Of a stretch of DNA of 64,000 nucleotides, positions 1 through 45,962 are shown piece by piece. The translations under genes and the position numbers were made by a program. Numbering within the stretch: the stretch's first letter is position 1; the number at the start of each line of letters is the position of its first letter. The notes under the pieces are model-generated. The model ran no database searches, was not told where the DNA came from, and saw only the letters and a list, made by a program, of their open reading frames with translations. Source of the DNA: Bacillota bacterium (GTDB lineage Bacteria; Bacillota_I; Bacilli_A; Izemoplasmatales; Hujiaoplasmataceae); assembly GCA_018816905.1 (NCBI GenBank), contig JAHIVB010000010.1, positions 62,001 through 126,000 on the forward strand. The letters are read 5' to 3'.

Positions 1-476
1 TCTTGACTTGCTTCTATTGCTGCATCCACCGCTGCTCTGACATTACTGACGTCCCCGGTTAAAATTGTAAATGCTTTTCCACCAAGCCCTCGTCCTAGTC
101 TGATTTCCAGCAGTTCGACATCCGCTGCTTTGACAGCTGCATCTGAAACCAATACCGCTGTTGCGAGTGAATAAGTTTCGATGATTCCAACCGCCCCTTT
201 TGGGACGATTTCAGTCGTGCAGCTTAAGGCTTTAAATACTTGGTCGTGAAGGTTGGGAATCATAATGTCTTTGACAAGTGACTTCCCTGCTGTTTTTGCG
301 CCAACTTCGATTGCGCTTTTCACTGCAGAAACAGACCCGCGGACAATGACGACATATTTTCCTGGACAAGAGGCGTATGCGCCTACCAGTTTGACTTCAG
401 CTGTTTTTATGATGGCATCTCCAGCTTCAATCCCTCTGGCGATACTGTTCAGTTCTATCATACCTAATGCTTCCAT
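1..476 (-). CDS. pduT: PduT-like tandem-BMC shell protein (C-terminus cut by window edge)
   Basis: Trimeric tandem-domain microcompartment shell protein of the PduT type. The visible part begins MEALGMIELNSIARGIEAGD, the classic start of a BMC domain, and a second BMC domain begins about residue 90 (AVGIIETYSLATAVLVSDAA). Cys37, in ASCPGKY, sits where PduT carries the cysteine that holds a [4Fe-4S] cluster at the trimer threefold axis, so electron transfer across the shell is expected from family knowledge. It follows pduS by 11 nt in the same operon, as in Salmonella pduST. The start is the ATG at 476. The last part of domain 2 lies beyond coordinate 1, so full length cannot be judged. Confidence 0.9.
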   Translation of the reverse strand, partial: MEALGMIELNSIARGIEAGDAIIKTAEVKLVGAYASCPGKYVVIVRGSVSAVKSAIEVGAKTAGKSLVKDIMIPNLHDQVFKALSCTTEIVPKGAVGIIETYSLATAVLVSDAAVKAADVELLEIRLGRGLGGKAFTILTGDVSNVRAAVDAAIEASQ

Positions 477-487
477 ATCGTTTCTCC

Positions 488-1801
488 TTAAGCCTTGATT
501 TCGATATAATCTGGTGTTACTGAGATGATTTTACCACTGATGCTCGCATGGATGTTCGCACCTAACAAATCACCGCAGGAACCAACTAAAGTGCCTTTTG
601 TTACGGTATCTCCTTGGGAAACCAAAGGAGAAGCAACCACGCCAATATGTTGTTTTAACAATATCTTCACTGAATACGATTCAAATAGTGTTTGATTCAG
701 CGGTGCCGGAACATCATAATCTGATAAGTCCAGTCTTGCGATTAAACGTTTTGTCGGAACGAGTTTGCTTTCTCGTAACGAATCGACTTCATGAGGGATT
801 ATTTTTTCTGTCTTTACGCCCTTTTTCAGTAAACTTTGCTTCACCATATTGGTAATTTTCCCAGGGTCTAGATCCATTGGACATGCATAGAGACTACATA
901 ATTGACAGTCGCAGCAAGATACAACGGACGAGATTGCGCCAAGGGCGCTTGGATCTTCATTTGCGAGACCTCTCATTACTTTGTGAGGTTCTGTATTGAG
1001 CCCATTGATATTTCGCGGACATAGATCTGTACAATAACTGCATTGGCAGCAAATAGCTTTCGTCAGTTGTAAGTCAGTCTGTGTTTTTCTCGTTTTTTTC
1101 GCGATAAGATGATGTTCTTTTGGTAGGATGATGATTGCCCCAGTCAGTTTGGTGACGGGTGCATCCCAGTCTTCTTCGACATGTCCCATCATCGGACCTC
1201 CGACAATCATGCTGTAACGACTCTCATCTCTGGGTCCTTCACAGAATTCGATCAGTTTTCGAAACGAAGTACCAATTGGAACAATCAATGTTTGTGGATT
1301 TTTGACCTCTCCGGTGACTGTAATGACTCTTTCTGTCACAGGGACGTTTCTTGCGATGTTCATCGCCGTTAAGACGTTAATGACAACGGCTCCGACATCG
1401 AGTGGAATACCCATTAAAGGTACAATCTTCTTTGTGACTTCATAAACGAGTTGTTGCTCGTCTCCTGCAGGATAGTAATCTTTAATGATTTTGATCTCGA
1501 TTTGTTTGTCGTTTTTCGTCAATTCTTTTAGATTTGAAATTGCAGAATGATGTTTTCCTTTTAAACAAATGACACCTTTTTCAGCGCCGGTTTGGATTAA
1601 GGCAATTTTCAGTCCTTCGACAACGTCTTCGCCGTAGAATTCCATCAATTGTTGATCAACCCTTAATAGAGGCTCACACTCCGCACCATTGACAATCACG
1701 ATTTCAGGAGTGCTATTTAGTTTTACATGTGTCGGAAAACCGGCTCCACCGGCACCGACAATGCCTTGTTCTTTAATTCTATCGATATAGTTTGAAGGCA
1801 T
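488..1801 (-). CDS. pduS: PduS-like BMC flavo-iron-sulfur reductase (RnfC family)
   Basis: Electron-transfer flavoprotein of the PduS/RnfC family, 437 aa. In Pdu systems PduS reduces cobalamin and binds PduT. The N-terminal glycine-rich nucleotide site GIVGAGGAGFPTHVKL is present. Two ferredoxin-type cysteine clusters lie near residues 251-261 (CCQCSYCTDLCP) and 295-308 (CCDCQLCSLYACP). The C-terminal part looks like a biotinyl/barrel-sandwich hybrid fold. I chose the ATG at 1801 because it is preceded by AAGGAGTG; an upstream in-frame start would read into the dehydrogenase gene. Since no B12 enzyme is visible, its role here may be NADH recycling through PduT rather than cobalamin reduction (inference). 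Confidence 0.9.
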   Translation of the reverse strand: MPSNYIDRIKEQGIVGAGGAGFPTHVKLNSTPEIVIVNGAECEPLLRVDQQLMEFYGEDVVEGLKIALIQTGAEKGVICLKGKHHSAISNLKELTKNDKQIEIKIIKDYYPAGDEQQLVYEVTKKIVPLMGIPLDVGAVVINVLTAMNIARNVPVTERVITVTGEVKNPQTLIVPIGTSFRKLIEFCEGPRDESRYSMIVGGPMMGHVEEDWDAPVTKLTGAIIILPKEHHLIAKKTRKTQTDLQLTKAICCQCSYCTDLCPRNINGLNTEPHKVMRGLANEDPSALGAISSVVSCCDCQLCSLYACPMDLDPGKITNMVKQSLLKKGVKTEKIIPHEVDSLRESKLVPTKRLIARLDLSDYDVPAPLNQTLFESYSVKILLKQHIGVVASPLVSQGDTVTKGTLVGSCGDLLGANIHASISGKIISVTPDYIEIKA

Positions 1802-1827
1802 AAATTTCACTCCTTGTGATGGTTTGA

Positions 1828-3282
1828 TTATACAATTCTGAAAGCACCTGATAAAGTACATCTTCTAATCCTTGAAAAACTTCTTGCGGATGTCAATCCT
1901 TCTCCGGTCGGCGTTGCAATCGTTAAAGTAGTGAATCCTTCTCCTTCGATGCCAAGCGCAGCGAAGGATGGGGCGTTTTTAACGAAAATAGAGGTATCAA
2001 GCGCTCTGGCTGCTTTCGTTAAGTTCGTTACGCTTTCCGAATGCATCATCGCGGAATGACGATTTCCATTTTCTGCGATGACCGCTTTTTCTATGGCTTC
2101 GTCAATGGAATAGACTCGAACCATTCCAAGAACAGGCATTAACATTTCAACGGTAATGAAAGGATGTGTCTCTGGGACTTCTGCAATAATCAGTTTAATG
2201 TCCTGAGGAGAATTGATTTTGCAAGCTTTTAAGATTTCTATTGCAGGTTTTCCAACATATTTTCGGTTTACAACGGTTTTACCTTGTTCATTGGTTTGGA
2301 ATACTTCTTTTGTGACGATATCAATTTCATGGCGTTTTAATTCATAACAACCATTCTTGATCATTTCGTTTCTGAATTCGTTATACACACTGTTTAGAAT
2401 GAATGCTTCTTTCTCAGCGATGCAGATGATGTTGTTATCAAAAGAGGCTCCGCGAAATACATCATTTGCGGCTTTTTTAATATTTGCTGTTTCATCAATG
2501 ATGACCGGAGGATTTCCAGGACCAGCAGCTATCACTTTTTTTCCGCTTTTCATTGCGACTGAGACAACCCCTTCTCCGCCTGTAACGACGAGAATTCTGA
2601 TGTCTTTATGGGTCATGATGACTTTTCCGGAGTCTATCGTTGGATTCAGTGGCGCTGTCAGCAATTCTTTCGGACCGCCCACTTCATGGATTGCTTTATT
2701 CAGTATCGAAATGGACTCTGAAGTGACTCTTTTTGCGCTAGGGTGAGGATTGAATACGACTCCGTTTCCTGCAGCTACCATGCTGATCGAGTTGTTGATG
2801 ATTGTGGAACTGGGGTTTGTCGAGGGTGTAATCGAACCAATGACTCCATAGGGGGCCATTTCGACTAATGTCATTCCATCATCCCCAGTATATGTCGTTG
2901 CGTATAGATCTTCTGTACCGGGTGTTTTCTCAGCCGCAAGCACATTTTTGATGATTTTGTCTTCGACTCTGCCCATGCCTGTTTCTTCATATGCCAAGAT
3001 TGCAAGTTTTTCAGCGTTTTCAAGACTTGCTTTTCTCATCGATGCTATAATCTCATTTCTCTTTTTCATCGATAGTTTTATCAGTTGTTTTTGAGATTCT
3101 TTTGCGGCGTGAATGGCATCTTCAACGTTTTCATATATCCCAATGTAATTCGATTTGACGTTGGGAACTCTTGAAACGGTTGGGGCTTGAGTCTGGACTG
3201 GAGTTTGAGAGGTTGCTTTATTGTTTCCGTATTTTTGTTCCATTTCGGCAGTCAATTTTTTGATTAGATCGTTTGTACTCAT
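1828..3282 (-). CDS. pduP: CoA-acylating aldehyde dehydrogenase, PduP/EutE type
   Basis: Converts an aldehyde plus CoA and NAD+ to acyl-CoA plus NADH inside microcompartments; 484 aa, the usual size for the family. The catalytic cysteine lies in FDNNIICIAEKE, and the cofactor-binding region around ITPSTNPSS is intact. Residues 1-18 (MSTNDLIKKLTAEMEQKY) form an amphipathic helix, followed by a Gln/Thr/Pro-rich linker to about residue 40. That is the arrangement of the PduP encapsulation peptide. The ATG overlaps the stop of the preceding gene (ATGA), implying translational coupling. Acetaldehyde is the likely substrate if the signature enzyme is an aldolase, but propionaldehyde cannot be excluded from sequence alone. 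Confidence 0.93.
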   Translation of the reverse strand: MSTNDLIKKLTAEMEQKYGNNKATSQTPVQTQAPTVSRVPNVKSNYIGIYENVEDAIHAAKESQKQLIKLSMKKRNEIIASMRKASLENAEKLAILAYEETGMGRVEDKIIKNVLAAEKTPGTEDLYATTYTGDDGMTLVEMAPYGVIGSITPSTNPSSTIINNSISMVAAGNGVVFNPHPSAKRVTSESISILNKAIHEVGGPKELLTAPLNPTIDSGKVIMTHKDIRILVVTGGEGVVSVAMKSGKKVIAAGPGNPPVIIDETANIKKAANDVFRGASFDNNIICIAEKEAFILNSVYNEFRNEMIKNGCYELKRHEIDIVTKEVFQTNEQGKTVVNRKYVGKPAIEILKACKINSPQDIKLIIAEVPETHPFITVEMLMPVLGMVRVYSIDEAIEKAVIAENGNRHSAMMHSESVTNLTKAARALDTSIFVKNAPSFAALGIEGEGFTTLTIATPTGEGLTSARSFSRIRRCTLSGAFRIV

Positions 3283-3998
3283 TGTTTTGCCTCCTCAATA
3301 AATTCAACTTTTATCTTGTACTCGCTCAACTTGTCTTTTGCGAGTGGCGTAATGACTTGACGTTTGTTCAATAGCAATGTTTTAAGTCCTTGTTTTTTCA
3401 TATCCATGACATATCGCTCTGTAATCAAGATGTTTGCGTCAATCACTTTATCCGGGTTATTCTGTATGTTTATAATGGAGATTCCCATATTTTCTAAGAG
3501 AGTGATCGTCGATGAAATCTTCGCCAAGACAGTCGCGTTTGAATTGATTAAAAATACGATGTTCTGATTGGTCATCAATCCATTTAAAATGATGTGATTG
3601 ATGTCTTCAGAATCATTTGTTTCAGTAATCGCCTTCATCTGAGATACTTTGGGGCTGACAATCAAGAGAGTGCCTGCACTATTGAGAAGCGATAGAAATT
3701 CAGGGTTTTTTAAATCGAAATTGATTGTATTGTACTGATCTTTTATTTCTTTTTCATGCGTTTTGTTGAAGTGATCGTTGAATACCAAATAGCTTGGTCC
3801 ATCTGAATAATTCTTTCTGATGTATGAATGATACTGGGAGAATCCAATCGTGTTTTCAGGGAGAATGATCAGGATGGATTTCGATTTTTTAATTGAACTG
3901 GAAGCTGTTTTTTGATTCGCAGATGGCAATTGATCGATTTTTTCGAGGATGCTATCCGTTACCATTTTGGCAAGTTTATCCAAGTTGTTGATTTCCAA
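3279..3998 (-). CDS. BMC-associated flavoprotein-like protein with N-terminal targeting helix
   Basis: 239 aa, not confidently recognised. The middle (roughly residues 45-190) has alternating beta/alpha hydrophobicity. The stretch LLIVSPKVSQMKAITETND, followed by INHIILNGLMTNQNIVFLI, resembles the flavin-binding core of PF02441 flavoproteins, a family found in some BMC loci. The C-terminus contains VITPLAKDKLSEYKIKV, a motif type I associate with several BMC accessory proteins. Residues 1-24, starting MEINNLDKLAKMVTDSILEK, form an amphipathic helix like an encapsulation peptide. The start chosen is TTG at 3998, with AAAGGAGG seven bases upstream. It sits between tpiA and pduP in the BMC operon. 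No enzymatic activity can be named. Confidence 0.72.
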   Translation of the reverse strand: MEINNLDKLAKMVTDSILEKIDQLPSANQKTASSSIKKSKSILIILPENTIGFSQYHSYIRKNYSDGPSYLVFNDHFNKTHEKEIKDQYNTINFDLKNPEFLSLLNSAGTLLIVSPKVSQMKAITETNDSEDINHIILNGLMTNQNIVFLINSNATVLAKISSTITLLENMGISIINIQNNPDKVIDANILITERYVMDMKKQGLKTLLLNKRQVITPLAKDKLSEYKIKVEFIEEAKQ

Positions 3999-4034: not shown

Positions 4035-4853
4035 TTATTTCCCGTTTAAAATATCATTGATTTGAGTGAGTGTCTTTGCACTTAAACTAGCGCCGCCAAT
4101 CAAGAATCCGGATACGCTTTGCGCAAGTGCAAGTTCTTTGACGTTTTCGGCGGTGACGGATCCACCATACAGCAATGGAATTTTTCTTCCGGTTTCAAAT
4201 CCATATTCGTCAATGAGATAATTTCTTAAAAACATGTGTACTTCTTCCACTTGTGAGGGTGTTGCGGTTACGCCAGTCCCAATGGCCCAAATCGGTTCGT
4301 AAGCGACAATCACTTTGGAACGGAGGGACTCATCAAGCAAGGATAAGCCTTCTTTAATCTGAGTTTTCAAAAAGGATTTATAATCTTCTTTTTCTCTTTG
4401 GATGAGGGACTCACCGATACATAGAATTGGTTTCATTTGATTTTTTATCGAAGAAAGGACTTTTTTCGCTGAGAAGTCATTGCATTCATTAAAAATGTTT
4501 CTTCTTTCGGAATGACCGATGATTGCATATTTACTGCCAAAATCTCGAGCCATTGTGATGGATATCTCGCCTGTGAAAGCACCGTTTTCTTTTGGATAGA
4601 AATTTTGGACTCCGTAGAAGACTCTAGTGTAACGAAGTTTCGATTCGAATAGATATAGATAGGGGCTTGGCGGAATGATCACAATCGTATTTTTTGTGCC
4701 AAGATCAGCTTTTGAGATTTCATCCAAGAATTCATTGACTTCACGTTTTGTCTTATTCATCTTCCAGTTTCCTACGACAAGAAAATCCTGGTTTTTCAGG
4801 ACGCTTTGTACGATTTCTTTTCTAACGATTTCTTCGATCTCGATTTTATTCAT
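4035..4853 (-). CDS. tpiA: Triose-phosphate isomerase with BMC-targeting-like N-terminal extension
   Basis: Interconverts dihydroxyacetone phosphate and glyceraldehyde-3-phosphate. Complete TIM barrel: Lys31 in GNWKMN, His114 in IIGHSERR, Glu186 in AYEPIWAIGTG, and the phosphate-binding LYGGSV and FLIGGASL loops. The protein is 272 aa, about 20 more than usual. The extra residues are N-terminal, MNKIEIEEIVRKEIVQSVLK, an amphipathic helix of encapsulation-peptide type. The start at 4853 is fixed by AAGGAG seven bases upstream; an in-frame TTG at 4874 lacks a ribosome site. It is the second gene of the BMC operon. It may be a compartment-specific isozyme, with the glycolytic tpiA elsewhere (inference). 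Confidence 0.95.
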   Translation of the reverse strand: MNKIEIEEIVRKEIVQSVLKNQDFLVVGNWKMNKTKREVNEFLDEISKADLGTKNTIVIIPPSPYLYLFESKLRYTRVFYGVQNFYPKENGAFTGEISITMARDFGSKYAIIGHSERRNIFNECNDFSAKKVLSSIKNQMKPILCIGESLIQREKEDYKSFLKTQIKEGLSLLDESLRSKVIVAYEPIWAIGTGVTATPSQVEEVHMFLRNYLIDEYGFETGRKIPLLYGGSVTAENVKELALAQSVSGFLIGGASLSAKTLTQINDILNGK

Positions 4854-4863
4854 TCTTGTCTCC

Positions 4864-5889
4864 TTATTTTGCAATAAGTTTTTCAGATCCTCTGAGGACG
4901 AGTTTGGTTTCTAGGAGCACTTCTTTAATCGCTTTGCTTTTCACTTGTTTTCGTTCAATCAGGTCAAATAGCATTTCAGCCGCGACTTCGCCCATCAAAT
5001 CGGTTGGTCTCGATACGGTTGAGATGTTCAAGTTCATGATTTCAAACATATCAACGTCATCAAAACTGATGAATGCCATGTCTTTTGGAATCGACATTTT
5101 GTTTTCTATTAACGCTTTGACACATCCGAGCGCCATCATGTTGTTGGCAGCGAATATAGCTGTGGGACGTTTTTCAAGTTTTAGAATTTTTTTTGTGATT
5201 TCATATCCACTTTCAAGTTTGAAATTACCATAAAACACGTAATTTTGATTGACTGACATGTTATTGCTGCGAATGGCATTTTCATAACCGTAGAAACGCT
5301 CTCTACCTGGTTTTGAAGACATTGGCCCCGAGATGATGGCAATATCCTTGTGTCCTTCTTTAATCAATGCGTTCACCGCATCGAAGGAACCGGATAGATT
5401 ATTGACGAATACGGAATTGAAATGAGAAATGTTGATGCCTCTATCGAGCAAAACGACTGGAACGCCTAACTCTTCAAGCTGGTAAAGGTACTTCGAGTTA
5501 TAACCAACTTGATCAGTATTCGGAGTGATAATCAGTCCGATGATATTATTCGTTTTAAAAAGAGTAAGATATTTTAATTCTTTTTCTAGTTGTTCTTCGG
5601 TGTTGCATACCAGCAGGCTTGCAGAGTATTGATCCGCTATTTTTGAAATCCCTTTAATGACTTCACCAAAAAAAGGATTTGAGATGTCAGGAATGACAAT
5701 GCCGATGATATTTGCTTTTTGTGTTGAGATGGACTGTCCTAATATTTTATCTTCATTCGCAAGTTCACCATAGGTTTGCATTACCAGTTCTTTGGTTTCT
5801 TCTTTGACATAGCCACTTTGATTCATGACCCTGGAAACGGTAGCTACTGATACGCCAGCCTTTGCTGCAATGTCTTTATTTTTAACCAT
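4864..5889 (-). CDS. LacI-family transcriptional regulator of the BMC operon
   Basis: 341 aa, the standard LacI/GalR length. The helix-turn-helix is at residues 4-23 (NKDIAAKAGVSVATVSRVMN), followed by a hinge and a periplasmic-binding-protein-like effector domain (NIIGIVIPDISNPFFGEVIK, AIFAANNMMALG, ISFDDVDMFEIM). It is the first gene of the operon and lies 10 nt from tpiA. It therefore probably controls the microcompartment genes and itself, sensing a pentose or deoxyribose-type sugar or its phosphate (inference). A LacI/cre-type operator overlaps the promoter at 5953-5966. It lacks nothing expected of the family. Confidence 0.93.
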   Translation of the reverse strand: MVKNKDIAAKAGVSVATVSRVMNQSGYVKEETKELVMQTYGELANEDKILGQSISTQKANIIGIVIPDISNPFFGEVIKGISKIADQYSASLLVCNTEEQLEKELKYLTLFKTNNIIGLIITPNTDQVGYNSKYLYQLEELGVPVVLLDRGINISHFNSVFVNNLSGSFDAVNALIKEGHKDIAIISGPMSSKPGRERFYGYENAIRSNNMSVNQNYVFYGNFKLESGYEITKKILKLEKRPTAIFAANNMMALGCVKALIENKMSIPKDMAFISFDDVDMFEIMNLNISTVSRPTDLMGEVAAEMLFDLIERKQVKSKAIKEVLLETKLVLRGSEKLIAK

Positions 5890-8272: not shown

Positions 8273-11200
8273 TTGGCAAAACTAGGCGATATCATATCAA
8301 AAACAATTGAATCGTATAAACCCAAGAAAACAAGTCATGAATTGACTTCTTCCCACCTTGAGGACGAACTCTATCAAGAATTGATGGAGAAAGAGAATGC
8401 ACTTCGTGAAATAGAGAAAAAATATCAACAAATCGAAGAAGACAAAGTTAAAGGATTTCTTACTCTAGAAGAAGAATATATCGAAGCAATCGATCACGTC
8501 AAGAGGGAGTATCAAGAAATCTTTGAACATCTTGATCTCGATGAAAACAATTTGAGACTTGAGATTGAATCCGCTTCAAAAAATGAAGATGAAACTTTTG
8601 ACAAAGTGATCAATAGCGTTTTTGATTTAAAAAATGAAGCTTATCAGCAGTTCTTGCGAATGGTACAAGCCTCCAATGATGCCATCGACGATGAAATGCG
8701 AGTTCACACCGAGTTTATCTCTTCCGAAACCGAGAAGTTCAATGAAGTTCAAAGAAATTATCAAGAGATGCAGACAGAGCAATCAAATAAATTGCTTTGG
8801 ACGATTGAACAATCAAGAAACGCATTGACTGACCTTTCAAATGAACTATTCGAAAAATCAAAAAATGAAACAGGTTTCGTCAATGAGTCGATTCTATCCA
8901 CTCTGAATAACCTCAGAACGACTAAAAACAAGATGTCTGCACTATTCAAGAGTGCAACTGACATGTATACAAAACAACGTGAACGGATCACTGCTCTCAG
9001 CAACCAAAGACAAAAACCACATACAATCATCAATCAGACCATCATTCATCAATTCGTCAAACAGATTAAAGAGGTCAATCAGAAGAAAGTCAGTTTCGAG
9101 AGACTCATTTTAAGCGAACTTAAAACTTCCAAAGAAATCATTGGCAAAAAAATCATTGAAAGCGACCAAGCTGGAGATTTAGTTTCTACTGAAAAATACA
9201 TTTTGCAATATGAAATCATACAGAATAAAGCGGATTACCTTTTAAGAAGAAACCAATCCATGGCTGACCTGCTGATTTCAAAATATCAAAACGAGATCAA
9301 GAAAATCAAAATTGATTCTTTTAAACGTGTCGAGGAAATTAAACTTGCGTACATGATGCCAGCAATGTTTTTCCAAAACAGCATCATTCTTTATTCCAAT
9401 TTTTCCTTCTATGTCAATGAATCTTTCGATGAACTTGATAACTTGTTGTCAGACTTGATTGTATTCAATTCTAAGTTTGCAGAAGCCAAAGTGGAATACA
9501 TTACTCAAGATGCGAAAGCAATGGAAGATTATCGAATTAATTTAATGGTTCGGGTAAGTAACGTTTGTTCAAATCTGACCGAATTGATTTCTAAAATTGA
9601 TTATTTCAGTAAAGAAATTATCACGCTTGAATCACAGAATCATTTGGAAATAGCTGAAGTAAGAAAACAAATGGAAAACGCCGAAATTCAGGGCGACTAC
9701 GATAAGTACATCCGATCCATCGAAGACGATCATTTCTTTGCAATATCGCAACATGAATCGAACCACGCAAAGATTATAAACCGATTTGAGAAAGACTATG
9801 GATACATTAGAATTCAAAGGGAAGTCGGTCAATTAAGACAGAATTTTGACTTCTTCCGAGCTAAAGCGGCATATTTAAAGGAGATCTCGGTCCTTGAGCA
9901 AGAAGTTCACCGAATTTCCTTTGAAAAGAATTTATCCGTATCCAGATCCAAAACTGAATATGAAATCAAACTCAATGACACCAAGTATCTCATGACTTTG
10001 GAAGCAATGCGCTCTGAGTCGAACAGACTCGCTTATCTATATGCGACTAGATATCTTGAAGAAGAGTCCGTTTATAAGGATAAGAAAGAAACGGGTAGTA
10101 AAGAAGTCATTGATTTCCTTCAACACTCTCAAAAACTAATTGACTACAATCGCGTCCAAACTGAACAAATCGTCAATGAGGTCGAATCTTCTACTTCTTC
10201 CAGAACCTATGCACACTATCTAGAGTATATGCGTTCACAAATCATCACTGCTTATGAAAATCAACTGAAGAATAAGATTAAGCTTAACGAGCAGGCAACG
10301 AAGCTAATCCATCATCCATTCTATGTAGCGAAATCAAGAATCGATTCGATTATCGATCCTTTCATGGTGCTTTTCAAACAGCGTCTTGTCTTGCTTGATC
10401 AATCCAATGTCAGCGTACTCAAATCCTATTTTGAGAATCAAGAATTCTTTGGTTACCGATTGATGAAAGCTTTTGATGAAGTTGAATCAGAACTTGAATC
10501 GTTGCTTGTTGAATTCAATCAACTTGATCAGTTATCAAACTTCAAAACTTTCATTGATAAGGCATTTGAAGAAACCGTCATTCTCATCCATAACGTCAAG
10601 ACCTCTTTTTCTCACAAGAAGCCTAAACACTATGTCAAACCATTGAATACATATTTGATTGAACAAATTCTCAATTTAAAACATCTGCTCAGATCATTGA
10701 ATGAATCGATGGATGTTCTTGAAGAAGAATTATTGGAAAATGATGTCATCTTTATTCAAAAATCAAAGGAAAAAGCTGAAAAAATCCAAAAAATCATCAA
10801 CCAAGAATATGACCGACTCATATTTTATGCGGTGAAATCTGACAAACACCGTACCCGTCAATCCAAAGAACTTTCAAAAGAAGCTTATGACATCGAATCT
10901 TCATTCAAAGATGAAGTCAAAAAAATTAACACAGTATATGTGAACTCACTAGAAAAAGAAACCGAGAAACTATCGTTCGTAAGAAAACAAATTTCGAAGC
11001 TGATTCTCAGTACCGAATCAAAATTGAAAAAGGATCTTAGTGTGTTAGAAAAAGCGTACCTGAATGAGCAACACGCCTTGCATCTCAAGTCTAGACTGTT
11101 CGAAAAAGCTTATCAAGACATACTCGAAATATTATCTGAAAATTTAGATGAAGAGTTCTATCTAATATCTAAAATGGAAGATCGGGAAAAAGAACAATTG

Positions 11201-11728
11201 CAAGTTTCTTTATCGATTCTTGAGAAAGAACTTCAAAACATTCCACTTAAATATGATGAAAAACTAAGACAGTTGAGTGAAAACAAGAATGCCTTGGTTA
11301 CCGAGAAAAAATCTCAATTGCTTGCAGATTATACGAAAATCGAAGAAAAGAAATTTTCTTCAAGGCCAGAATTGCTTGCGAAAATGGATGAGATCAAAAA
11401 TCGTTTGCCTTCGGACTATCTTGCAATGTATCAAAACATTTCGAAAGCTGAAGAGCAGTTCTTAACTCAGTATTTGAATATCACCACGGATTATACATCC
11501 GACTTTGAAGAATTCTTGAATCGTCAAAAATCATCCAGAGCCTTACTAAGTAATCAGGAGTTTCTATACCAACCGCTTCAAAGTTTCATCAACCTGGAAG
11601 AAACGCTCCTATCCAAGAACTTGGAAGCTTATGACGATACCTTATTTAAAGCAAAAGCCACAAAAGACCTTCTTCTATCCGAAGAAGCGAAGGCAAAGGA
11701 CAAGGAAAACAGAATTATAAACGATTAG
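8273..11728 (+). CDS. Giant coiled-coil protein 1, function unknown
   Basis: 1151 aa, start codon TTG at 8273 with GGAGGTG five bases upstream. I recognise no catalytic family. The protein is almost entirely charged alpha-helix with heptad-like spacing and long runs rich in Glu, Lys, Gln, Ser and Asn. It has one Cys, one Trp and very few Gly or Pro. It has no signal peptide, no membrane segment and no Walker motif, so it is not an SMC-type ATPase. A less charged, aromatic-richer patch near residues 355-395 (MMPAMFFQNSIILYSNFSF) and another around 690-720 (HHPFYVAKSRIDSIIDPFM) may be small globular or bending regions. It forms a two-gene operon with the next gene. A cytoskeletal or scaffold role is plausible but is inference. 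Confidence 0.88.
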   Translation: MAKLGDIISKTIESYKPKKTSHELTSSHLEDELYQELMEKENALREIEKKYQQIEEDKVKGFLTLEEEYIEAIDHVKREYQEIFEHLDLDENNLRLEIESASKNEDETFDKVINSVFDLKNEAYQQFLRMVQASNDAIDDEMRVHTEFISSETEKFNEVQRNYQEMQTEQSNKLLWTIEQSRNALTDLSNELFEKSKNETGFVNESILSTLNNLRTTKNKMSALFKSATDMYTKQRERITALSNQRQKPHTIINQTIIHQFVKQIKEVNQKKVSFERLILSELKTSKEIIGKKIIESDQAGDLVSTEKYILQYEIIQNKADYLLRRNQSMADLLISKYQNEIKKIKIDSFKRVEEIKLAYMMPAMFFQNSIILYSNFSFYVNESFDELDNLLSDLIVFNSKFAEAKVEYITQDAKAMEDYRINLMVRVSNVCSNLTELISKIDYFSKEIITLESQNHLEIAEVRKQMENAEIQGDYDKYIRSIEDDHFFAISQHESNHAKIINRFEKDYGYIRIQREVGQLRQNFDFFRAKAAYLKEISVLEQEVHRISFEKNLSVSRSKTEYEIKLNDTKYLMTLEAMRSESNRLAYLYATRYLEEESVYKDKKETGSKEVIDFLQHSQKLIDYNRVQTEQIVNEVESSTSSRTYAHYLEYMRSQIITAYENQLKNKIKLNEQATKLIHHPFYVAKSRIDSIIDPFMVLFKQRLVLLDQSNVSVLKSYFENQEFFGYRLMKAFDEVESELESLLVEFNQLDQLSNFKTFIDKAFEETVILIHNVKTSFSHKKPKHYVKPLNTYLIEQILNLKHLLRSLNESMDVLEEELLENDVIFIQKSKEKAEKIQKIINQEYDRLIFYAVKSDKHRTRQSKELSKEAYDIESSFKDEVKKINTVYVNSLEKETEKLSFVRKQISKLILSTESKLKKDLSVLEKAYLNEQHALHLKSRLFEKAYQDILEILSENLDEEFYLISKMEDREKEQLQVSLSILEKELQNIPLKYDEKLRQLSENKNALVTEKKSQLLADYTKIEEKKFSSRPELLAKMDEIKNRLPSDYLAMYQNISKAEEQFLTQYLNITTDYTSDFEEFLNRQKSSRALLSNQEFLYQPLQSFINLEETLLSKNLEAYDDTLFKAKATKDLLLSEEAKAKDKENRIIND

Positions 11729-11740
11729 CAGGAGGTAGTG

Positions 11741-14698
11741 ATGGCTAAGACAGATAAATCGATCCAAAAAGAATCAGACAATTTTACATCCTACCGCAAA
11801 TCAGTCGGTGAAGCCTTTCATAAGGAATTAAAACTTTATGAAGATTTTTACTCGAAGATCACTCATCGGGCAACAACTCACAGACAAATTACACTGAACA
11901 ATTTAACCGAGATTGAAGAAAAACTGGATCAACTAAAAAAAGATGCTTCTCAAATCAAACATAGCCTCTTCTTTCATGAGGAATATGAGATTGTGGACAG
12001 ACAGGAAATTATTTCGCATACCGAGATGTCCGCACAAAATCAAAATCAATCCTTCCTGGAATATCACTACCAAGATAAAAATGAGATTTTGAACTCCTTG
12101 GATTACTTGAACAAGGCTCTCATTCAAACAAGAACTTCCTTTTTTGATCAATTTCAAAGGACGTATTTGGAAAATATTTTTGAGAATGAATCTCTGTTCA
12201 ACTACTTTCTTGATTCTTCGAAAGAATTCAATCAAATACTCGACAGACACCAAAGTGAAATTTTGGAACTTTTCCTTAGTCTTGACGAAGAGATAAAAAA
12301 TATGGACGATTCGATTTCTCAAATTATCAAAAGAAAGAATCGTACTGTTTCCAAGTCCAACCATTTTTATGAAAATGAAATGAAGTTTTTTATTGACAAT
12401 CAACTTTTGTTCAGTGCCGAAGCGGATCCGACCAGTGTAGACATCCAAGCATTGATATCGGATAAGATTCGTCAATTTGAAGTATTTAAGAAACATGTCC
12501 AAGCTGAAGACGAAAAAATAACTCGTTTGTTAAACAACGAATATTGTAGTTTGTTTGATCAGGTTTTAGCTAGACAGTTAAATCAAAAATCAAATTTGAT
12601 CAGTAATTCTCTTCATTTTTTTGAGGATCCTGAAAAATCACTTGAAGAGCTCAAGATGGAAGTTTTGAGAGCTCAAGAAAAGAATGACAAAATCAAATTA
12701 AGAGAAGCGATACAGCTTTACCAAAAAGCTCAAAAATACATTGAAATCAAAAAACAATCCGAAAAACGGACTGAATCGATGCTCAAGAAATTTGAAAAAG
12801 AAAAGAAAGCGATCCTTTTAGAATATCGAATCAACTCCAATAAGATCACAACAGAGCTTGAAAGGTATTTGACCCTTTTTGAAGAATTGATGGATAAAGA
12901 TACTTTCCTTGCCCAGGCAATCGGAGACTCGTCGTCCAAAATAATCAAAGACGAACTCAATCGACTTTCCATTCTTCAACTTAACAAAGAACTCAAAACC
13001 AACATTAACTATGATATCGAGTCTTTGAAAATCAAATCAAGAATCAATGAAATCGAAATGGAAATGTCTTTCATGGTGAAGAAACAAATGCTTCTCCAGG
13101 AAATCGAACTGCTTGAAACCGTCAACAAAGTGCAGTTATTCCTTTTGAATCATAAGGCTTCTTATGTTCACGCCAAAATGGATATCCAAAAAGAATCGAA
13201 ATACATCGGTCGTCTTGAACGTGCACTCAATGTCCATCTGGCTTTTCTTCATGAGACATCCGATATTTCAAGGAAAATACAATCGGAATTCTATGAGAAA
13301 GTCATTCGTCAAATTCGGAGCGAAGAGACACACCACATTCACGTCCAGGAAGCTTCGTCGAAGCTGAAGTTCGCTCTCAAAGAATACGATATTAAGGCCA
13401 TCCATTTTAAAACAATGATGGAAAATGAACTTGCATACATCGTCATGCAGTCATCCAGAGTCAGTGAGGAAAATCAAATTCATCATGAATTCATCCTCAC
13501 AACTTATGAGAACCAAATGCGATTTTCAAAAGAACAGATTGAACTTGCTGAAAGTGAATACCGAATCAGAATTGAAGCGCTTCAGAGAACGGTGAATGAA
13601 GAAAAGACCTATTTTGATGATTTGATTCGAAATAAGATGCAAAAATACGAGAAAAACAGAAAACAAGCGGAACACGAATATGAATCGAAATTGTATCAAA
13701 ACCGTCACCTTCTTTCGGAAACCTCCGATCCCAAGATTCATAAAATTTTAGAAAAAGAAGCGAAGGATCTAAAGAAAAACCATGAGGAGTTTTTGACAAA
13801 GTGGTCAAAAGAAATGATGAAGGATCCTTTGGTAGAATCCGCTAAAAACCGCATTCAAGAATTGGAAGAAGATTTTCTCGACGCGATGGAAGACGCTAAA
13901 AAACTTCGTGATGAAACCCTCCTTCAGATGGTGGAAATCTATGAAGATGCCAAAAACCATTTTGAAGTCTTGAAACCATTTTTGGATAACAAAATGAACG
14001 TACTGGATCCTGAGTTTTACCATATGCTTGAAAGAATCAACGAAAGGTACCATTATAAATTAAAACTTGCTGAAGCTATCCTTGACCAAGATACCCAAGA
14101 ACTGCTTGACGCCTATGTTAAGGTCTATTTTGAACCTCAAGTGCTGGCAGATCCGGAGAACTATCGTCCCCTTCTGAATTCTCTCATTAGTGCACGTGAA
14201 GAAGCACGTCAGAGATATGAAGAAAAAATGAAACAAATAGAAAACGATTTTCTTCAAGAAACTTCTTTGCTCGAACAAGAAGAAATTCGATTCGACGAGT
14301 CTCTCAATAATACCAAATTGACTCAAAAAGCAAAATATGAATCTTCAAGGAAATCACTTGAAACGGAAGTCGACCAACTCTCTTTGGAATATGAAACGGC
14401 TCAATCAGATCATTCCTTAAAAAGAACGACGTCCATAAATACTTTGACTGAAGAATACGAATCCGCACTCATCAATAATCAAAAGTACATTAAATCCCTG
14501 ACCATCGATTTCAATAAGATTTTAAAGAGTTATCAACCTTACATTAAAATCCAAAAAAAGAACAAAGATATTCGTAAAATTCTGTCCACAAACAGAATGA
14601 TCTTCAAAACTCAACTCAAAAAAACAAAAAAAGAACTGAAGAAAAGAACCAAGGCTTTCGAATTCACAAAGAAACATAAGACAAAAACGGATGATTAA
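11741..14698 (+). CDS. Giant coiled-coil protein 2, function unknown
   Basis: 985 aa, ATG at 11741 with AGGAGGT just upstream, 12 nt after gene 1. It has the same character as its neighbour: continuous charged helix, one Cys, one Trp, no signal peptide, no membrane segment and no nucleotide-binding motif. A less regular, possibly globular insert lies near residues 755-815 (HFEVLKPFLDNKMNVLDPE and VYFEPQVLADPENYRP). The C-terminal 60 residues are strongly basic (KKTKKELKKRTKAFEFTKKH), which could bind nucleic acid or acidic membrane. Tight linkage and shared composition suggest the two proteins work together or are diverged paralogues. No function can be assigned. Confidence 0.88.
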   Translation: MAKTDKSIQKESDNFTSYRKSVGEAFHKELKLYEDFYSKITHRATTHRQITLNNLTEIEEKLDQLKKDASQIKHSLFFHEEYEIVDRQEIISHTEMSAQNQNQSFLEYHYQDKNEILNSLDYLNKALIQTRTSFFDQFQRTYLENIFENESLFNYFLDSSKEFNQILDRHQSEILELFLSLDEEIKNMDDSISQIIKRKNRTVSKSNHFYENEMKFFIDNQLLFSAEADPTSVDIQALISDKIRQFEVFKKHVQAEDEKITRLLNNEYCSLFDQVLARQLNQKSNLISNSLHFFEDPEKSLEELKMEVLRAQEKNDKIKLREAIQLYQKAQKYIEIKKQSEKRTESMLKKFEKEKKAILLEYRINSNKITTELERYLTLFEELMDKDTFLAQAIGDSSSKIIKDELNRLSILQLNKELKTNINYDIESLKIKSRINEIEMEMSFMVKKQMLLQEIELLETVNKVQLFLLNHKASYVHAKMDIQKESKYIGRLERALNVHLAFLHETSDISRKIQSEFYEKVIRQIRSEETHHIHVQEASSKLKFALKEYDIKAIHFKTMMENELAYIVMQSSRVSEENQIHHEFILTTYENQMRFSKEQIELAESEYRIRIEALQRTVNEEKTYFDDLIRNKMQKYEKNRKQAEHEYESKLYQNRHLLSETSDPKIHKILEKEAKDLKKNHEEFLTKWSKEMMKDPLVESAKNRIQELEEDFLDAMEDAKKLRDETLLQMVEIYEDAKNHFEVLKPFLDNKMNVLDPEFYHMLERINERYHYKLKLAEAILDQDTQELLDAYVKVYFEPQVLADPENYRPLLNSLISAREEARQRYEEKMKQIENDFLQETSLLEQEEIRFDESLNNTKLTQKAKYESSRKSLETEVDQLSLEYETAQSDHSLKRTTSINTLTEEYESALINNQKYIKSLTIDFNKILKSYQPYIKIQKKNKDIRKILSTNRMIFKTQLKKTKKELKKRTKAFEFTKKHKTKTDD

Positions 14699-14741: not shown

Positions 14742-15920
14742 TTATCTCAGAAGCTTTAAATACGACTTTCCAATCGCTGTTTGGCGAACATTGAAGTTCT
14801 CAGCGACTGTTGCGCCAATATTCGCAAAAGTATCTCCTATGGGCAAATAACTACCGTTAAGGTCATGATTATAGATGAAGAGCGGAATATATTCTCTAGT
14901 ATGATCCGTTCCTCTAAAGGTCGGGTCATTTCCATGGTCTGCCGTAATCATCAATAGATCATCACTATGAAGCATAGAAATCATTTCAGTCAAATCTTTA
15001 TCGAATTCTTCCATGGCTTGCTTGTATCCAATGACGTCTCTTCTGTGTCCATAAAGCGCATCAAAATCAACGAGGTTGGTAAATGCCAATCCAGTAAAAT
15101 CTTTTTCCACTAGTTCCATGGTCTTGACCATTCCGTCATGATTCGATACAATCGAATGATGATCGGTGATTCCACTTCCATTGAATATATCTTTGATTTT
15201 ACCAACTGAAATCACATCAAACTTGGATTCTTCCAAGTAATTCAAGACGGTTGCGGATGAAGGAGAGAGTGCATAGTCATGACGGTTAGGTGTTCTCTTG
15301 AACCCGTCTTTTTTATTTCCAAGATAAGGTCTGGCGATAATTCTGCCAACCTTCCATTCGTCTTTCATGCATAGGTCCCTGGCGATATGACAGATATCGT
15401 AGAGTTCTTCTAGCGGAATAATCTCTTCATGAGCAGCGATTTGAAGAACGGAGTCCGCACTGGTATAGACAATCAAATCTCCCGTATTCATTTGATGCTC
15501 GCCAAGCTCTTCAAGGATAACTGTGCCTGAAGCGGCTTTGTTTCCAACGACTTTTCTACCGGTTCTTTTTTCCAGTTCGTCAATCAATTCTTTAGGGAAA
15601 CCGTGATCCGTGAAAGTTTGAAATGGTTTTTCTGTCAGAATCCCCATAATTTCCCAGTGTCCGGTCATCGTGTCTTTTCCGTTAGAAAGTTCCGCAAGTT
15701 TTGTCGTATTCGCAATTGGGAAGTTGGTTGGTTCCACCCCTTGGATCGAAGTCAGGTTTCCATAACCAAATTTCTCCAGTGTCGGAAGGTGAATTCCACC
15801 CGCTGCTTTGGCGATGTTTCCGATTGTATTCGCTCCTTCGTCGTCGAATTTTTTGGCATCGGGCATTTCCCCGACACCAACGGAATCGATAACGATTAAA
15901 AATATTCTTTTGAATTTCAT
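14742..15920 (-). CDS. deoB: Phosphopentomutase
   Basis: Interconverts (deoxy)ribose-1-phosphate and 5-phosphate, the step that feeds nucleoside-derived deoxyribose to deoxyribose-5-phosphate aldolase. 392 aa, full length. Alkaline-phosphatase-fold metal sites are FLIVIDSVGVGEMPD and ITADHGNDPTFRGTDHTRE; the phosphorylated Thr is in NGKDTMTGHWE. The start at 15920 has AGAGGAA upstream and sits 1 nt from the xerD stop, so it is the last gene of hemW-xerD-deoB. It would supply substrate for the type of microcompartment suspected at the left end, though it is not in that operon. Confidence 0.97.
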   Translation of the reverse strand: MKFKRIFLIVIDSVGVGEMPDAKKFDDEGANTIGNIAKAAGGIHLPTLEKFGYGNLTSIQGVEPTNFPIANTTKLAELSNGKDTMTGHWEIMGILTEKPFQTFTDHGFPKELIDELEKRTGRKVVGNKAASGTVILEELGEHQMNTGDLIVYTSADSVLQIAAHEEIIPLEELYDICHIARDLCMKDEWKVGRIIARPYLGNKKDGFKRTPNRHDYALSPSSATVLNYLEESKFDVISVGKIKDIFNGSGITDHHSIVSNHDGMVKTMELVEKDFTGLAFTNLVDFDALYGHRRDVIGYKQAMEEFDKDLTEMISMLHSDDLLMITADHGNDPTFRGTDHTREYIPLFIYNHDLNGSYLPIGDTFANIGATVAENFNVRQTAIGKSYLKLLR

Positions 15921-44075: not shown

Positions 44076-44544
44076 CTTTGATCACCTTTAAACGATAATC
44101 TTCTAATTTTCGATACTTGATTTTAGCAGAATTGAATAAACGTTTTGAGGCTTGGTCTATTTCAGTGCCTTCATACTTATCAGACAGGTAAATCACTTCC
44201 TTGATTCCTGATTGAATGATTAATTTGGCACATTCGTTGCATGGAAACAAAGTAACATACATTTTCGACCCTTCAAGGTCGACATTGGAATTGAGAATCG
44301 CATTGGGTTCAGCATGGACGACATAAGGATATTTCGTATCCAAGAATTTTCCTTCTCTTTCCCATGGAAAATCATCATCGTCGCATCCAATTGGAAAACC
44401 ATTGTATCCAATTCCTACGATTCTGTTTTTTGGGTTGACGATACACGCTCCCACTTGAGAGGAATCGTCTTTACTTCTCATGCTCGATAAATCGGCAACA
44501 CCCATAAAGTATTCGTCCCAGGATAGATAATCATTCCGTTTCAT
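44068..44544 (-). CDS. dCMP deaminase (ComEB type)
   Basis: 158 aa zinc enzyme converting dCMP to dUMP for thymidylate synthesis. The zinc and proton-shuttle motifs are [12 protein letters not shown] (HAE) and [13 protein letters not shown] (PCxxC). The long loop with [15 protein letters not shown] before the HAE motif is typical of dCMP deaminases rather than tRNA or cytidine deaminases. It overlaps both neighbours, psuG upstream and the protease downstream. Confidence 0.92.
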
Positions 44545-45457
44545 ATGGAAAATTCTCCTTGAAGTAGATTTTTGCTATATTAGCCGCGACATAAGCGTTA
44601 TTGAAGACGAGTTCCATATTTGCGACCAAGGAAGCGCCTTCGGTAATTTCGGTTATTCTTTTCAAAAGATAAGGGGTAATCTCTTTTCCTTTGATGGAAT
44701 AAGCATCACATTCGATTAAAGCCTGTTCAATCGCCGCGTCTATGGCTTGTTTGTCATAACTAAATTCTTTGGGAATCGGATTGGCAATCAAGACACCTCC
44801 AGGAAGTGGTAAATCCCATTTTGCTTTTAAAAAAGATGCGACTTCTTCAAAAGAAGATAAACTGATGGGTACGTCGAAATCAGAGTCTCTTGTGTAAAAC
44901 GCTGGCATTTCAGTGACGCCAAAGCCGATGACTGGAACGCCAAGGGTTTCAAGGTACTCTAGTGTTTTTCCTATGTCTAGAATCGATTTCACGCCAGCGG
45001 ATACGACACATACGCTGGTTGTTTTGAGTTCTTCCAAATCTGCGGAGATATCCATCGTCGTTTCACCGTGACGATGCACCCCACCAATTCCTCCGGTCGC
45101 AAAAAACCGAATACCTGCAAGCTGTGAAGCAATCATCGTCGCTGCGACGGTCAATGCACCGTTTTTCTTTTTGCTTAAAGCCAATGGAAGATCTCTTCTT
45201 GATACTTTCATAACGGTTGCGTCCGGCTTGGCTATCGCTTCGATTTCCGATTTGGACAGTCCTACTTTGATGATGCCGTCGATGATGGCAATTGTTGCTG
45301 GAATCGCTCCGTTTTCTCGAATGATTTCTTCGCATCTCAATGCGGTTTCAATATTTTTCGGATAAGGCATTCCATGAGAAATAATGGTCGATTCCAAGGC
45401 GACGACAGGTTGATTGGATTCAATTGCTTTTCTGACTTCATCTGAGATCATTAACAT
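44531..45457 (-). CDS. psuG: Pseudouridine-5'-phosphate glycosidase
   Basis: Splits pseudouridine 5'-phosphate into uracil and ribose 5-phosphate. 308 aa. Family blocks are [57 protein letters not shown] and [12 protein letters not shown]. The start is ATG 45457 with AGGTGA upstream, overlapping the end of msrA. The partner kinase psuK is not adjacent in this window, so phosphorylation must come from elsewhere. It indicates scavenging of modified RNA nucleosides. Confidence 0.95.
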
Positions 45458-45458
45458 C

Positions 45459-45962
45459 TTATTCACCTGATTTCAATTCTTCTTTTTTTGCAAGAGACAT
45501 GTTGACATGGCAATATCCCGAAGGATTCTTTTCTAAATAGTGTTGATGATAGGTTTCTGCATCGTAAAAGTCACTGGCTTGCTTGACAAACGTCGATAAT
45601 GGTTTGGTGTAGTTCTTTCTTGCCCCTTCGATGAATGTAAGCACTCGATCTTCGTCTTCTTTTGTAAACAAGAAGAATCCATTTCGGTATTGCACGCCGA
45701 AGTCGTGTCCTTGACGATTTCTTTGAGTCGGGTCCACGATTCTGAAAAAGTGTTCACAGATTTTATCTAAAGAAATGACTTCTTCGTCATATTCAATCCA
45801 GACGGCCTCTACGTGACCTGAATTATCGCATACATCCTTGTAAGTAGGATTTTCAGTCGGTCCGTCCGTATACCCTACTCTTGTGTTCATAATTCCTTTG
45901 AGTCTTTTATAATAATGTTCAACGCCCCAGAAACACCCTGCAGCGACAATGATTTTTTTCAT
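45459..45962 (-). CDS. msrA: Peptide methionine-S-sulfoxide reductase A
   Basis: Repairs oxidised methionine (S-epimer). 167 aa. The catalytic Cys is in AAGCFWGVEHYY; further signatures are TRVGYTDGPTENPTYKDVC and HDFGVQYRNGFFL. No MsrB domain is fused. Its ATG overlaps the tcdA stop. Confidence 0.96.
   Translation of the reverse strand: MKKIIVAAGCFWGVEHYYKRLKGIMNTRVGYTDGPTENPTYKDVCDNSGHVEAVWIEYDEEVISLDKICEHFFRIVDPTQRNRQGHDFGVQYRNGFFLFTKEDEDRVLTFIEGARKNYTKPLSTFVKQASDFYDAETYHQHYLEKNPSGYCHVNMSLAKKEELKSGE

What the first reader, a model, noticed from the sequence alone, without database searches (positions are those of the whole stretch)
4035..4853. Triose-phosphate isomerase with a microcompartment encapsulation helix
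The TPI is catalytically complete but carries about 20 extra N-terminal residues (MNKIEIEEIVRKEIVQSVLK) with hydrophobic residues on one face. This is the pattern of BMC encapsulation peptides such as those of PduD and PduP. The gene lies inside the BMC operon. TPI is normally a cytosolic glycolytic enzyme. Packing it would pull glyceraldehyde-3-phosphate through inside or at the shell, and points to an aldolase-type core.
Basis: partly seen in the sequence, partly recalled or inferred. Interest (0 to 1): 0.82.

Follow-up and report, generated by a model that had tools for sequence, protein, structure and literature searches.

The report
Shell-tagged triose-phosphate isomerase in DNA eater
A wall-less sediment bacterium of a DNA-eating group carries, besides its normal glycolytic triose-phosphate isomerase, a second copy whose extra front end looks like the tag that packs enzymes into a protein-shelled compartment for digesting DNA sugar.

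Summary
Observation confirmed. The TPI at 4035-4853(-) has intact catalytic residues and a genuine 22-residue N-terminal extension: single start, Shine-Dalgarno, no internal start, and the same extension in 10 Izemoplasmatales-type genomes. It is the second gene, after a LacI-type regulator, of a conserved operon that continues left of the window: TPI, PduM-like, acetaldehyde dehydrogenase, PduS, PduT, BMC-H, DeoC, EutN, RpiB, Pta. This matches the known SPU (sugar-phosphate utilisation) BMC. An ordinary tpiA without the extension sits elsewhere beside pgk. Among 150 relatives the extended TPI occurs essentially only with this BMC; genomes without it have plain TPIs. A profile of the extension ranks the E. 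coli EutC encapsulation peptide first among 1,088 N-termini. I think it is a packaging peptide (about 0.73) that puts TPI beside DeoC, turning aldehydic G3P into DHAP inside the shell. Two caveats: it is not amphipathic on one face, because the hydrophobic stripe shifts mid-helix, and there is no flexible linker, unlike DeoC in the same operon. A non-targeting structural helix, as in PduE, is therefore not excluded. TIM in one Atribacteria SPU locus was noted in 2014. New here are the tag, the dedicated TPI clade and the link to isotope-labelled DNA degraders.

The parts
4035..4853 (-). BMC-associated triose-phosphate isomerase with N-terminal extension (272 aa)
   Evidence: PF00121 E 1.4e-80; catalytic N29, K31, H114, E186; solved TPIs are the best fold matches
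4788..4853 (-). N-terminal extension, residues 1-22 (MNKIEIEEIVRKEIVQSVLKNQ), putative encapsulation peptide
   Evidence: conserved pattern in 10 genomes; AF2 helix 3-21; profile match to EutC and other BMC cargo N-termini
4860..4866 (-). Shine-Dalgarno TAAGGAG of the TPI gene, overlapping the stop codon of the upstream LacI-type gene
   Evidence: sequence
4864..5889 (-). LacI-family regulator, first gene of the conserved cluster; nearest NCBIfam models RbsR, PurR, CytR (all below their cut-offs)
   Evidence: conserved next to TPI in the homologous loci
3279..3998 (-). PduM-like protein with its own EP-like N-terminus; start is probably the TTG at 3998
   Evidence: TIGR04493 PduM E 1e-4 and PF15953 E 3.5e-4, both below curated cut-offs
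1828..3282 (-). CoA-acylating acetaldehyde dehydrogenase (EutE/PduP type) with EP-like N-terminus and long linker
   Evidence: NF011927, 629 bits against a cut-off of 403
488..1861 (-). PduS/RnfC-like Fe-S flavoprotein
1..476 (-). BMC-T shell protein (PduT type), cut by the window edge; the operon continues at G000:C4 with BMC-H x3, DeoC, EutN x3, RpiB, Pta
   Evidence: L003; BMC domains; EutN
14742..15920 (-). DeoB phosphopentomutase, which supplies deoxyribose-5-phosphate to DeoC
   Evidence: TIGR01696 552 bits, above cut-off

Best explanation
The gene encodes a dedicated second TPI of an SPU-type metabolosome that degrades the deoxyribose of DNA. Its 22-residue N-terminal helix is an encapsulation peptide that co-packs TPI with DeoC, aldehyde dehydrogenase and the PduM-like protein. 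Proposed working: nucleoside phosphorylase and DeoB make deoxyribose-5-phosphate, which enters the shell; DeoC splits it into acetaldehyde and glyceraldehyde-3-phosphate; the dehydrogenase and Pta turn acetaldehyde into acetyl-CoA and acetyl phosphate; TPI converts glyceraldehyde-3-phosphate into dihydroxyacetone phosphate on the spot, which draws the reversible DeoC reaction forward and lets the triose leave as a non-aldehyde; the ordinary cytosolic TpiA converts it back for glycolysis. Shown here: gene content, intact active-site residues, conserved extension, association with the BMC, EP-like profile, second tpiA. Inferred: targeting by the helix, location inside the shell, flux direction and the shuttle.
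For: Operon content and order are conserved, as far as the contigs reach, in 10 genomes. The extended TPI occurs in 10 of 150 relatives, 9 of which have BMC domains; the tenth is a 4.8-kb contig with the same neighbours; one other BMC genome has a plain TPI. Nine hosts keep an ordinary TPI; the extended ones form a separate 100/100 clade. The hydrophobic/polar pattern is 95% conserved although the extension diverges faster than the body (47% against 71% identity). In the profile search EutC ranks 1st, and three other N-termini from BMC loci are in the top 11, of 1,088; EutC is never first with shuffled columns. Positions critical in PduP (E7, I10, R11, L14; PMC12339742, PMC11157265) match: R11 10/10, V/I10, I/L14, E7 7/10. 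DeoC, DeoB, a pyrimidine-phosphorylase-type gene and lamin-tail proteins are present.
Against: No localisation data. Helical moment at 100 degrees is low and the hydrophobic phase shifts after residue 10. There is no flexible linker: AF2 joins the helix to beta-1 in about three residues, while DeoC of relative zrk6 has a low-confidence linker. The PduE extension resembles an EP but does not target (PMC12108088). In the same profile test the window operon's DeoC ranks only 54th and its dehydrogenase 537th.
Confidence: 0.73

Rival explanations
1. The extension is a structural helix of a BMC-specific TPI lineage: it packs under the barrel or at the dimer and stabilises the enzyme, as the PduE extension does, and TPI is carried along with other cargo or stays in the cytosol.
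For: No linker and confident helix placement (pLDDT 81-91 through the junction); hydrophobic stripe not on one face; conserved group-specific hydrophobics at the barrel bottom such as F24, F51, Y75, L243; PduE precedent (PMC12108088).
Against: Fast sequence divergence with pattern kept, profile kinship with EutC and other BMC cargo N-termini, R11 and V/I10 conserved as in PduP, and strict association with the BMC operon.
Confidence: 0.18
2. The extension is an encapsulation peptide but the compartment runs in the synthetic direction: TPI makes glyceraldehyde-3-phosphate from dihydroxyacetone phosphate so that DeoC can condense it with acetaldehyde, as a carbon or redox store.
For: DeoC is reversible and its equilibrium favours condensation (established enzymology); aldehyde condensation and storage was proposed for Atribacteria BMCs with DeoC and RpiB (PMC6281690).
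Against: Operon has acetaldehyde dehydrogenase and phosphotransacetylase; the genome has DeoB, a pyrimidine-phosphorylase-type gene and lamin-tail proteins of the kind found in DNA-degradation loci; close relatives belong to an isotope-labelled DNA-degrading lineage (PMC8289736).
Confidence: 0.07
3. Start-codon artefact: the real protein begins just before the barrel and the extension is untranslated.
For: Some ordinary TPIs get false extensions from upstream start codons (L068, L040, L043).
Against: Shine-Dalgarno at this ATG in all 10 genomes, no internal start in the window gene, conserved pattern, and absence of the extension from the hosts' own second TPIs.
Confidence: 0.02

Closest known systems
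SPU (sugar-phosphate utilisation) BMC loci (Axen 2014 PMC4207490; Sutter 2021 PMC8217296)
   Same: DeoC plus RpiB plus aldehyde dehydrogenase with BMC shell genes and EutN; a TIM was noted in one Atribacteria locus in 2014.
   Different: Here TPI is a constant operon member with an EP-like extension and forms its own clade; a Pta (PF01515) is in the operon and a PduL-type PTAC lies about 1 kb beyond. Subtype (SPU1-7) not assigned.
Metabolosome encapsulation peptides (EutC, PduD, PduP, PduM)
   Same: N-terminal helix of about 20 residues, alternating hydrophobic pairs, R11 and the hydrophobics at 10 and 14 in the same positions as PduP; best profile match is EutC.
   Different: An extra residue shifts the hydrophobic phase, and there is no disordered linker to the enzyme.
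PduE N-terminal extension (PMC12108088)
   Same: EP-like pattern, absent from homologues outside compartments, attached closely to the protein body.
   Different: PduE does not target cargo; whether this one does is unknown.
TPI loaded into Haliangium ochraceum shells (PMC13185154)
   Same: TPI is active inside BMC shells, so its substrate and product can cross those shells.
   Different: Synthetic cargo attached by SpyCatcher; here the packaging appears natural.

Membership tests
SPU BMC | DeoC-type aldolase (pfam01791) in the BMC locus | tested here: met
   TIGR00126 280 bits, above cut-off; PF01791
SPU BMC | RpiB-type isomerase (pfam02502) in the BMC locus | tested here: met
   PF02502 E 2.8e-53; TIGR01120 above cut-off
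SPU BMC | Shell proteins BMC-H, BMC-T and BMC-P | tested here: met
   PF00936 and PF03319
SPU BMC | Acylating aldehyde dehydrogenase and phosphotransacylase | tested here: met
   NF011927 and Pta TIGR00651 above cut-off; PduL-type PTAC nearby
SPU BMC | Assembles a shell and degrades deoxyribose phosphate | not testable with these tools
   needs experiment
Encapsulation peptide | Terminal helix of 15-20 residues | tested here: met
   AF2 helix, residues 3-21
[quoted passage not shown]
   moment 0.10 at 100 degrees, shuffle p 0.89; best periodicity 80 degrees; the first half alone is closer to it
[quoted passage not shown]
   pairs 9-10, 14-15, 18-19 hydrophobic in 10/10, plus 6; one spacing is longer than usual
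Encapsulation peptide | Flexible linker to the cargo | tested here: not met
   about three residues to beta-1, high pLDDT; contrast DeoC of zrk6
Encapsulation peptide | Absent from homologues outside compartments | tested here: met
   ordinary TPIs in the hosts and in relatives lack it
Encapsulation peptide | Directs cargo to the shell or core | not testable with these tools
   needs a reporter fusion
Triose-phosphate isomerase | TIM barrel with the Asn/Lys, His, Glu catalytic set and loop 6 | tested here: met

The most novel reading that the evidence does not exclude
A glycolytic enzyme has a natural, dedicated, shell-packed paralogue whose targeting helix is fused rigidly, without a linker, with one half facing the shell or other EPs and the other half docking on the enzyme. 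Two TPIs on either side of the shell then act as a G3P/DHAP shuttle that keeps the aldehyde inside.
Probability: 0.35. Interest if true: 0.72.

Novelty: new variant of a known kind. Interest (0 to 1): 0.55.

Why it matters
SPU compartments are among the commonest BMC types, but their predicted role in eating DNA sugar rests on gene content in the papers read here. This locus adds a step (aldehyde triose to ketone triose) to the proposed pathway and places it in a lineage that includes an isotope-labelled DNA degrader (Ca. Izemoplasma acidinucleici, L007) and strain zrk6 with a complete genome (L010), so the idea becomes directly testable. It also offers a natural counterpart to the engineered TPI-in-shell systems and a test of whether an encapsulation peptide needs a flexible linker.

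Tried and rejected
Simple amphipathic-moment test: failed at 100 degrees, so that argument was dropped in favour of pattern conservation and profile matching. KSB1 genomes rich in BMCs were checked for BMC-linked TPIs: 61 with EutN, no TPI seen beside the shell genes, and the one KSB1 locus read is a class II aldolase type rather than SPU. Wider phylum sample: only the window genome and G141 of 392 carry EutN. PDB sequence search with the extension alone: no hit. Barrel-bottom residue analysis: suggestive but weak, since the long stem branch gives many group-specific residues. Model coordinates and PAE were not available, so helix orientation could not be measured. Atribacteria could not be reached with the remaining search options, and supplements of the BMC catalogues were not available. 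Duplication of the host's own tpiA: disfavoured by the tree.

Full report
What is there. The window is G000:C4:62001-126000 of a 1.67-Mb, about 86% complete genome. The gene at 4035-4853(-) is a TPI with all catalytic residues and 27 residues before GNWK, against 7-10 in most ordinary TPIs. The start is secure: an ATG with TAAGGAG upstream, no internal start codon before the barrel in the window gene, and a Shine-Dalgarno-like site in all ten homologues. The Shine-Dalgarno overlaps the stop codon of the upstream LacI-type gene.

Surroundings. The operon runs left out of the window. In order of transcription: LacI-type regulator, TPI, PduM-like protein, EutE/PduP-type aldehyde dehydrogenase, PduS, PduT, three BMC-H, DeoC, EutN, RpiB, two EutN, Pta. 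A PduL-type PTAC lies about 1 kb further on, past an opposite-strand gene. DeoC carries its own EP-like helix (moment 0.69, shuffle p 0.002), followed by what AF2 on the zrk6 relative makes a low-confidence linker. This gene set is the SPU metabolosome of Axen 2014 (PMC4207490) and Sutter 2021 (PMC8217296), proposed there to degrade products of DNA. Axen 2014 already noted a TIM in one Atribacteria SPU locus; the passages read do not mention a targeting extension on it. DeoB is in the window; a pyrimidine-phosphorylase-type gene and two lamin-tail-domain proteins are elsewhere in the genome.

Who has it. The closest homologues come from Tenericutes/Mycoplasmatota genomes, among them Ca. Izemoplasma acidinucleici MAG-BB-5 and strain zrk6. 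The former was named in a study where 13C-DNA labelling identified DNA degraders (PMC8289736); a word search of the text held here found neither 'compartment' nor 'deoxyribose'. Among 150 relatives, ten have the extended TPI and ten have BMC domains. Nine are the same genomes. The tenth extended TPI (G076) sits on a 4.8-kb contig with the same neighbours. The tenth BMC genome (G141) has a plain TPI. Two congeneric genomes lack both. Fisher p is 1e-12, but the genomes are related, so this is not an independent-sample probability. Nine of the ten hosts, including the window genome, were confirmed to keep an ordinary TPI. The extended TPIs are one clade (100/100) on a long stem, separate from the hosts' own TPIs. 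DeoC behaves differently: in most BMC genomes the tagged DeoC is the only convincing one found.

Is the extension an encapsulation peptide? For: it is BMC-specific; it diverges in sequence (47% pairwise identity against 71% in the body) but keeps hydrophobics at 6, 9, 10, 14, 15, 18, 19 in 10/10; R11 is invariant, V/I10 and I/L14 are kept and E7 is present in 7/10, the positions found critical in PduP (PMC12339742, PMC11157265). A position-specific profile from the ten extensions, run over 1,088 scored N-termini from all loci fetched (including L157, the E. coli eut region that I added for this purpose), puts E. coli EutC first, a KSB1 BMC aldehyde dehydrogenase third, a PduD-like protein tenth and a PduM-like protein eleventh; with shuffled columns EutC is never first in 100 trials. 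The PduD-like and PduM-like labels of those rows are my reading of sequence and context. The same test places the window operon's DeoC 54th and its dehydrogenase 537th, so it supports kinship with the EutC type without being a general EP detector. Against: the helix is joined to beta-1 by about three residues with no disordered linker; its hydrophobic periodicity is 80-85 degrees, so the face turns between residues 10 and 14; and PduE shows that such an extension can be structural (PMC12108088). A reading that fits both sides is that the N-terminal half faces the shell or other EPs and the C-terminal half docks on the barrel; group-specific hydrophobics at the barrel bottom are compatible but weak.

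Mechanism. From established enzymology (own knowledge, not tested here), DeoC cleavage is reversible and favours condensation, while TPI favours DHAP about 20 to 1. Placing TPI beside DeoC would drain G3P and leave a ketone to exit the shell; the cytosolic TpiA would restore G3P for glycolysis. This direction is inferred. The reverse, aldehyde condensation, was proposed for Atribacteria (PMC6281690) and is less likely here given the DNA-catabolism genes.

Controls. A tpiA-rpiB-deoC cluster in an Elusimicrobia bacterium, where no shell genes were detected in the stretch examined, has neither a TPI nor a DeoC extension. In 61 KSB1 genomes with EutN, no TPI was seen beside the shell genes. So a BMC-linked, extended TPI is not a general BMC feature.

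Known or new. The compartment type is known; TIM in such a locus was noted once; TPI has been packed into shells artificially (PMC13185154). The tagged, dedicated TPI clade in Izemoplasmatales and its unusual linker-free helix were not found in the papers searched, which cover open-licence literature only.

Noticed in passing
window 3279-3998 (-): A PduM-like protein with an EP-like N-terminus in an SPU-type operon. PduM has been described as having no known sequence homologues outside Pdu compartments (PMC12108088); the match here is weak and below curated cut-offs.
   Followed up: partly
L003:15165-15950 (-) and homologues: In most BMC genomes the tagged DeoC is the only DeoC found, while relatives without the BMC have an untagged one; G028 has both.
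   Followed up: partly
window 8273-11728 and 11738-14698 (+): Two adjacent very large proteins (1151 and 986 aa) that read as coiled-coil throughout, without any NCBIfam match.
   Followed up: no
window 44531-45466 (-): Reads like a pseudouridine-5'-phosphate glycosidase, which would yield ribose-5-phosphate for RpiB; NCBIfam gave no match, so this is a reading from sequence only.
   Followed up: no
L033:10010-11917 (+): Elusimicrobia cluster tpiA-rpiB-deoC, with deoB further on and no shell genes detected in the stretch: an apparently unencapsulated version of the same enzyme set.
   Followed up: partly
L100 (G141:C221:60000-76000): A different BMC locus (BMC-H, EutN, aldehyde dehydrogenase) in a genome of the same class whose TPI is plain; its type was not identified.
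   Followed up: no
L003:11140-11712 (-): A PduL-type PTAC about 1 kb beyond the end of the operon, in addition to the Pta inside it.
   Followed up: no
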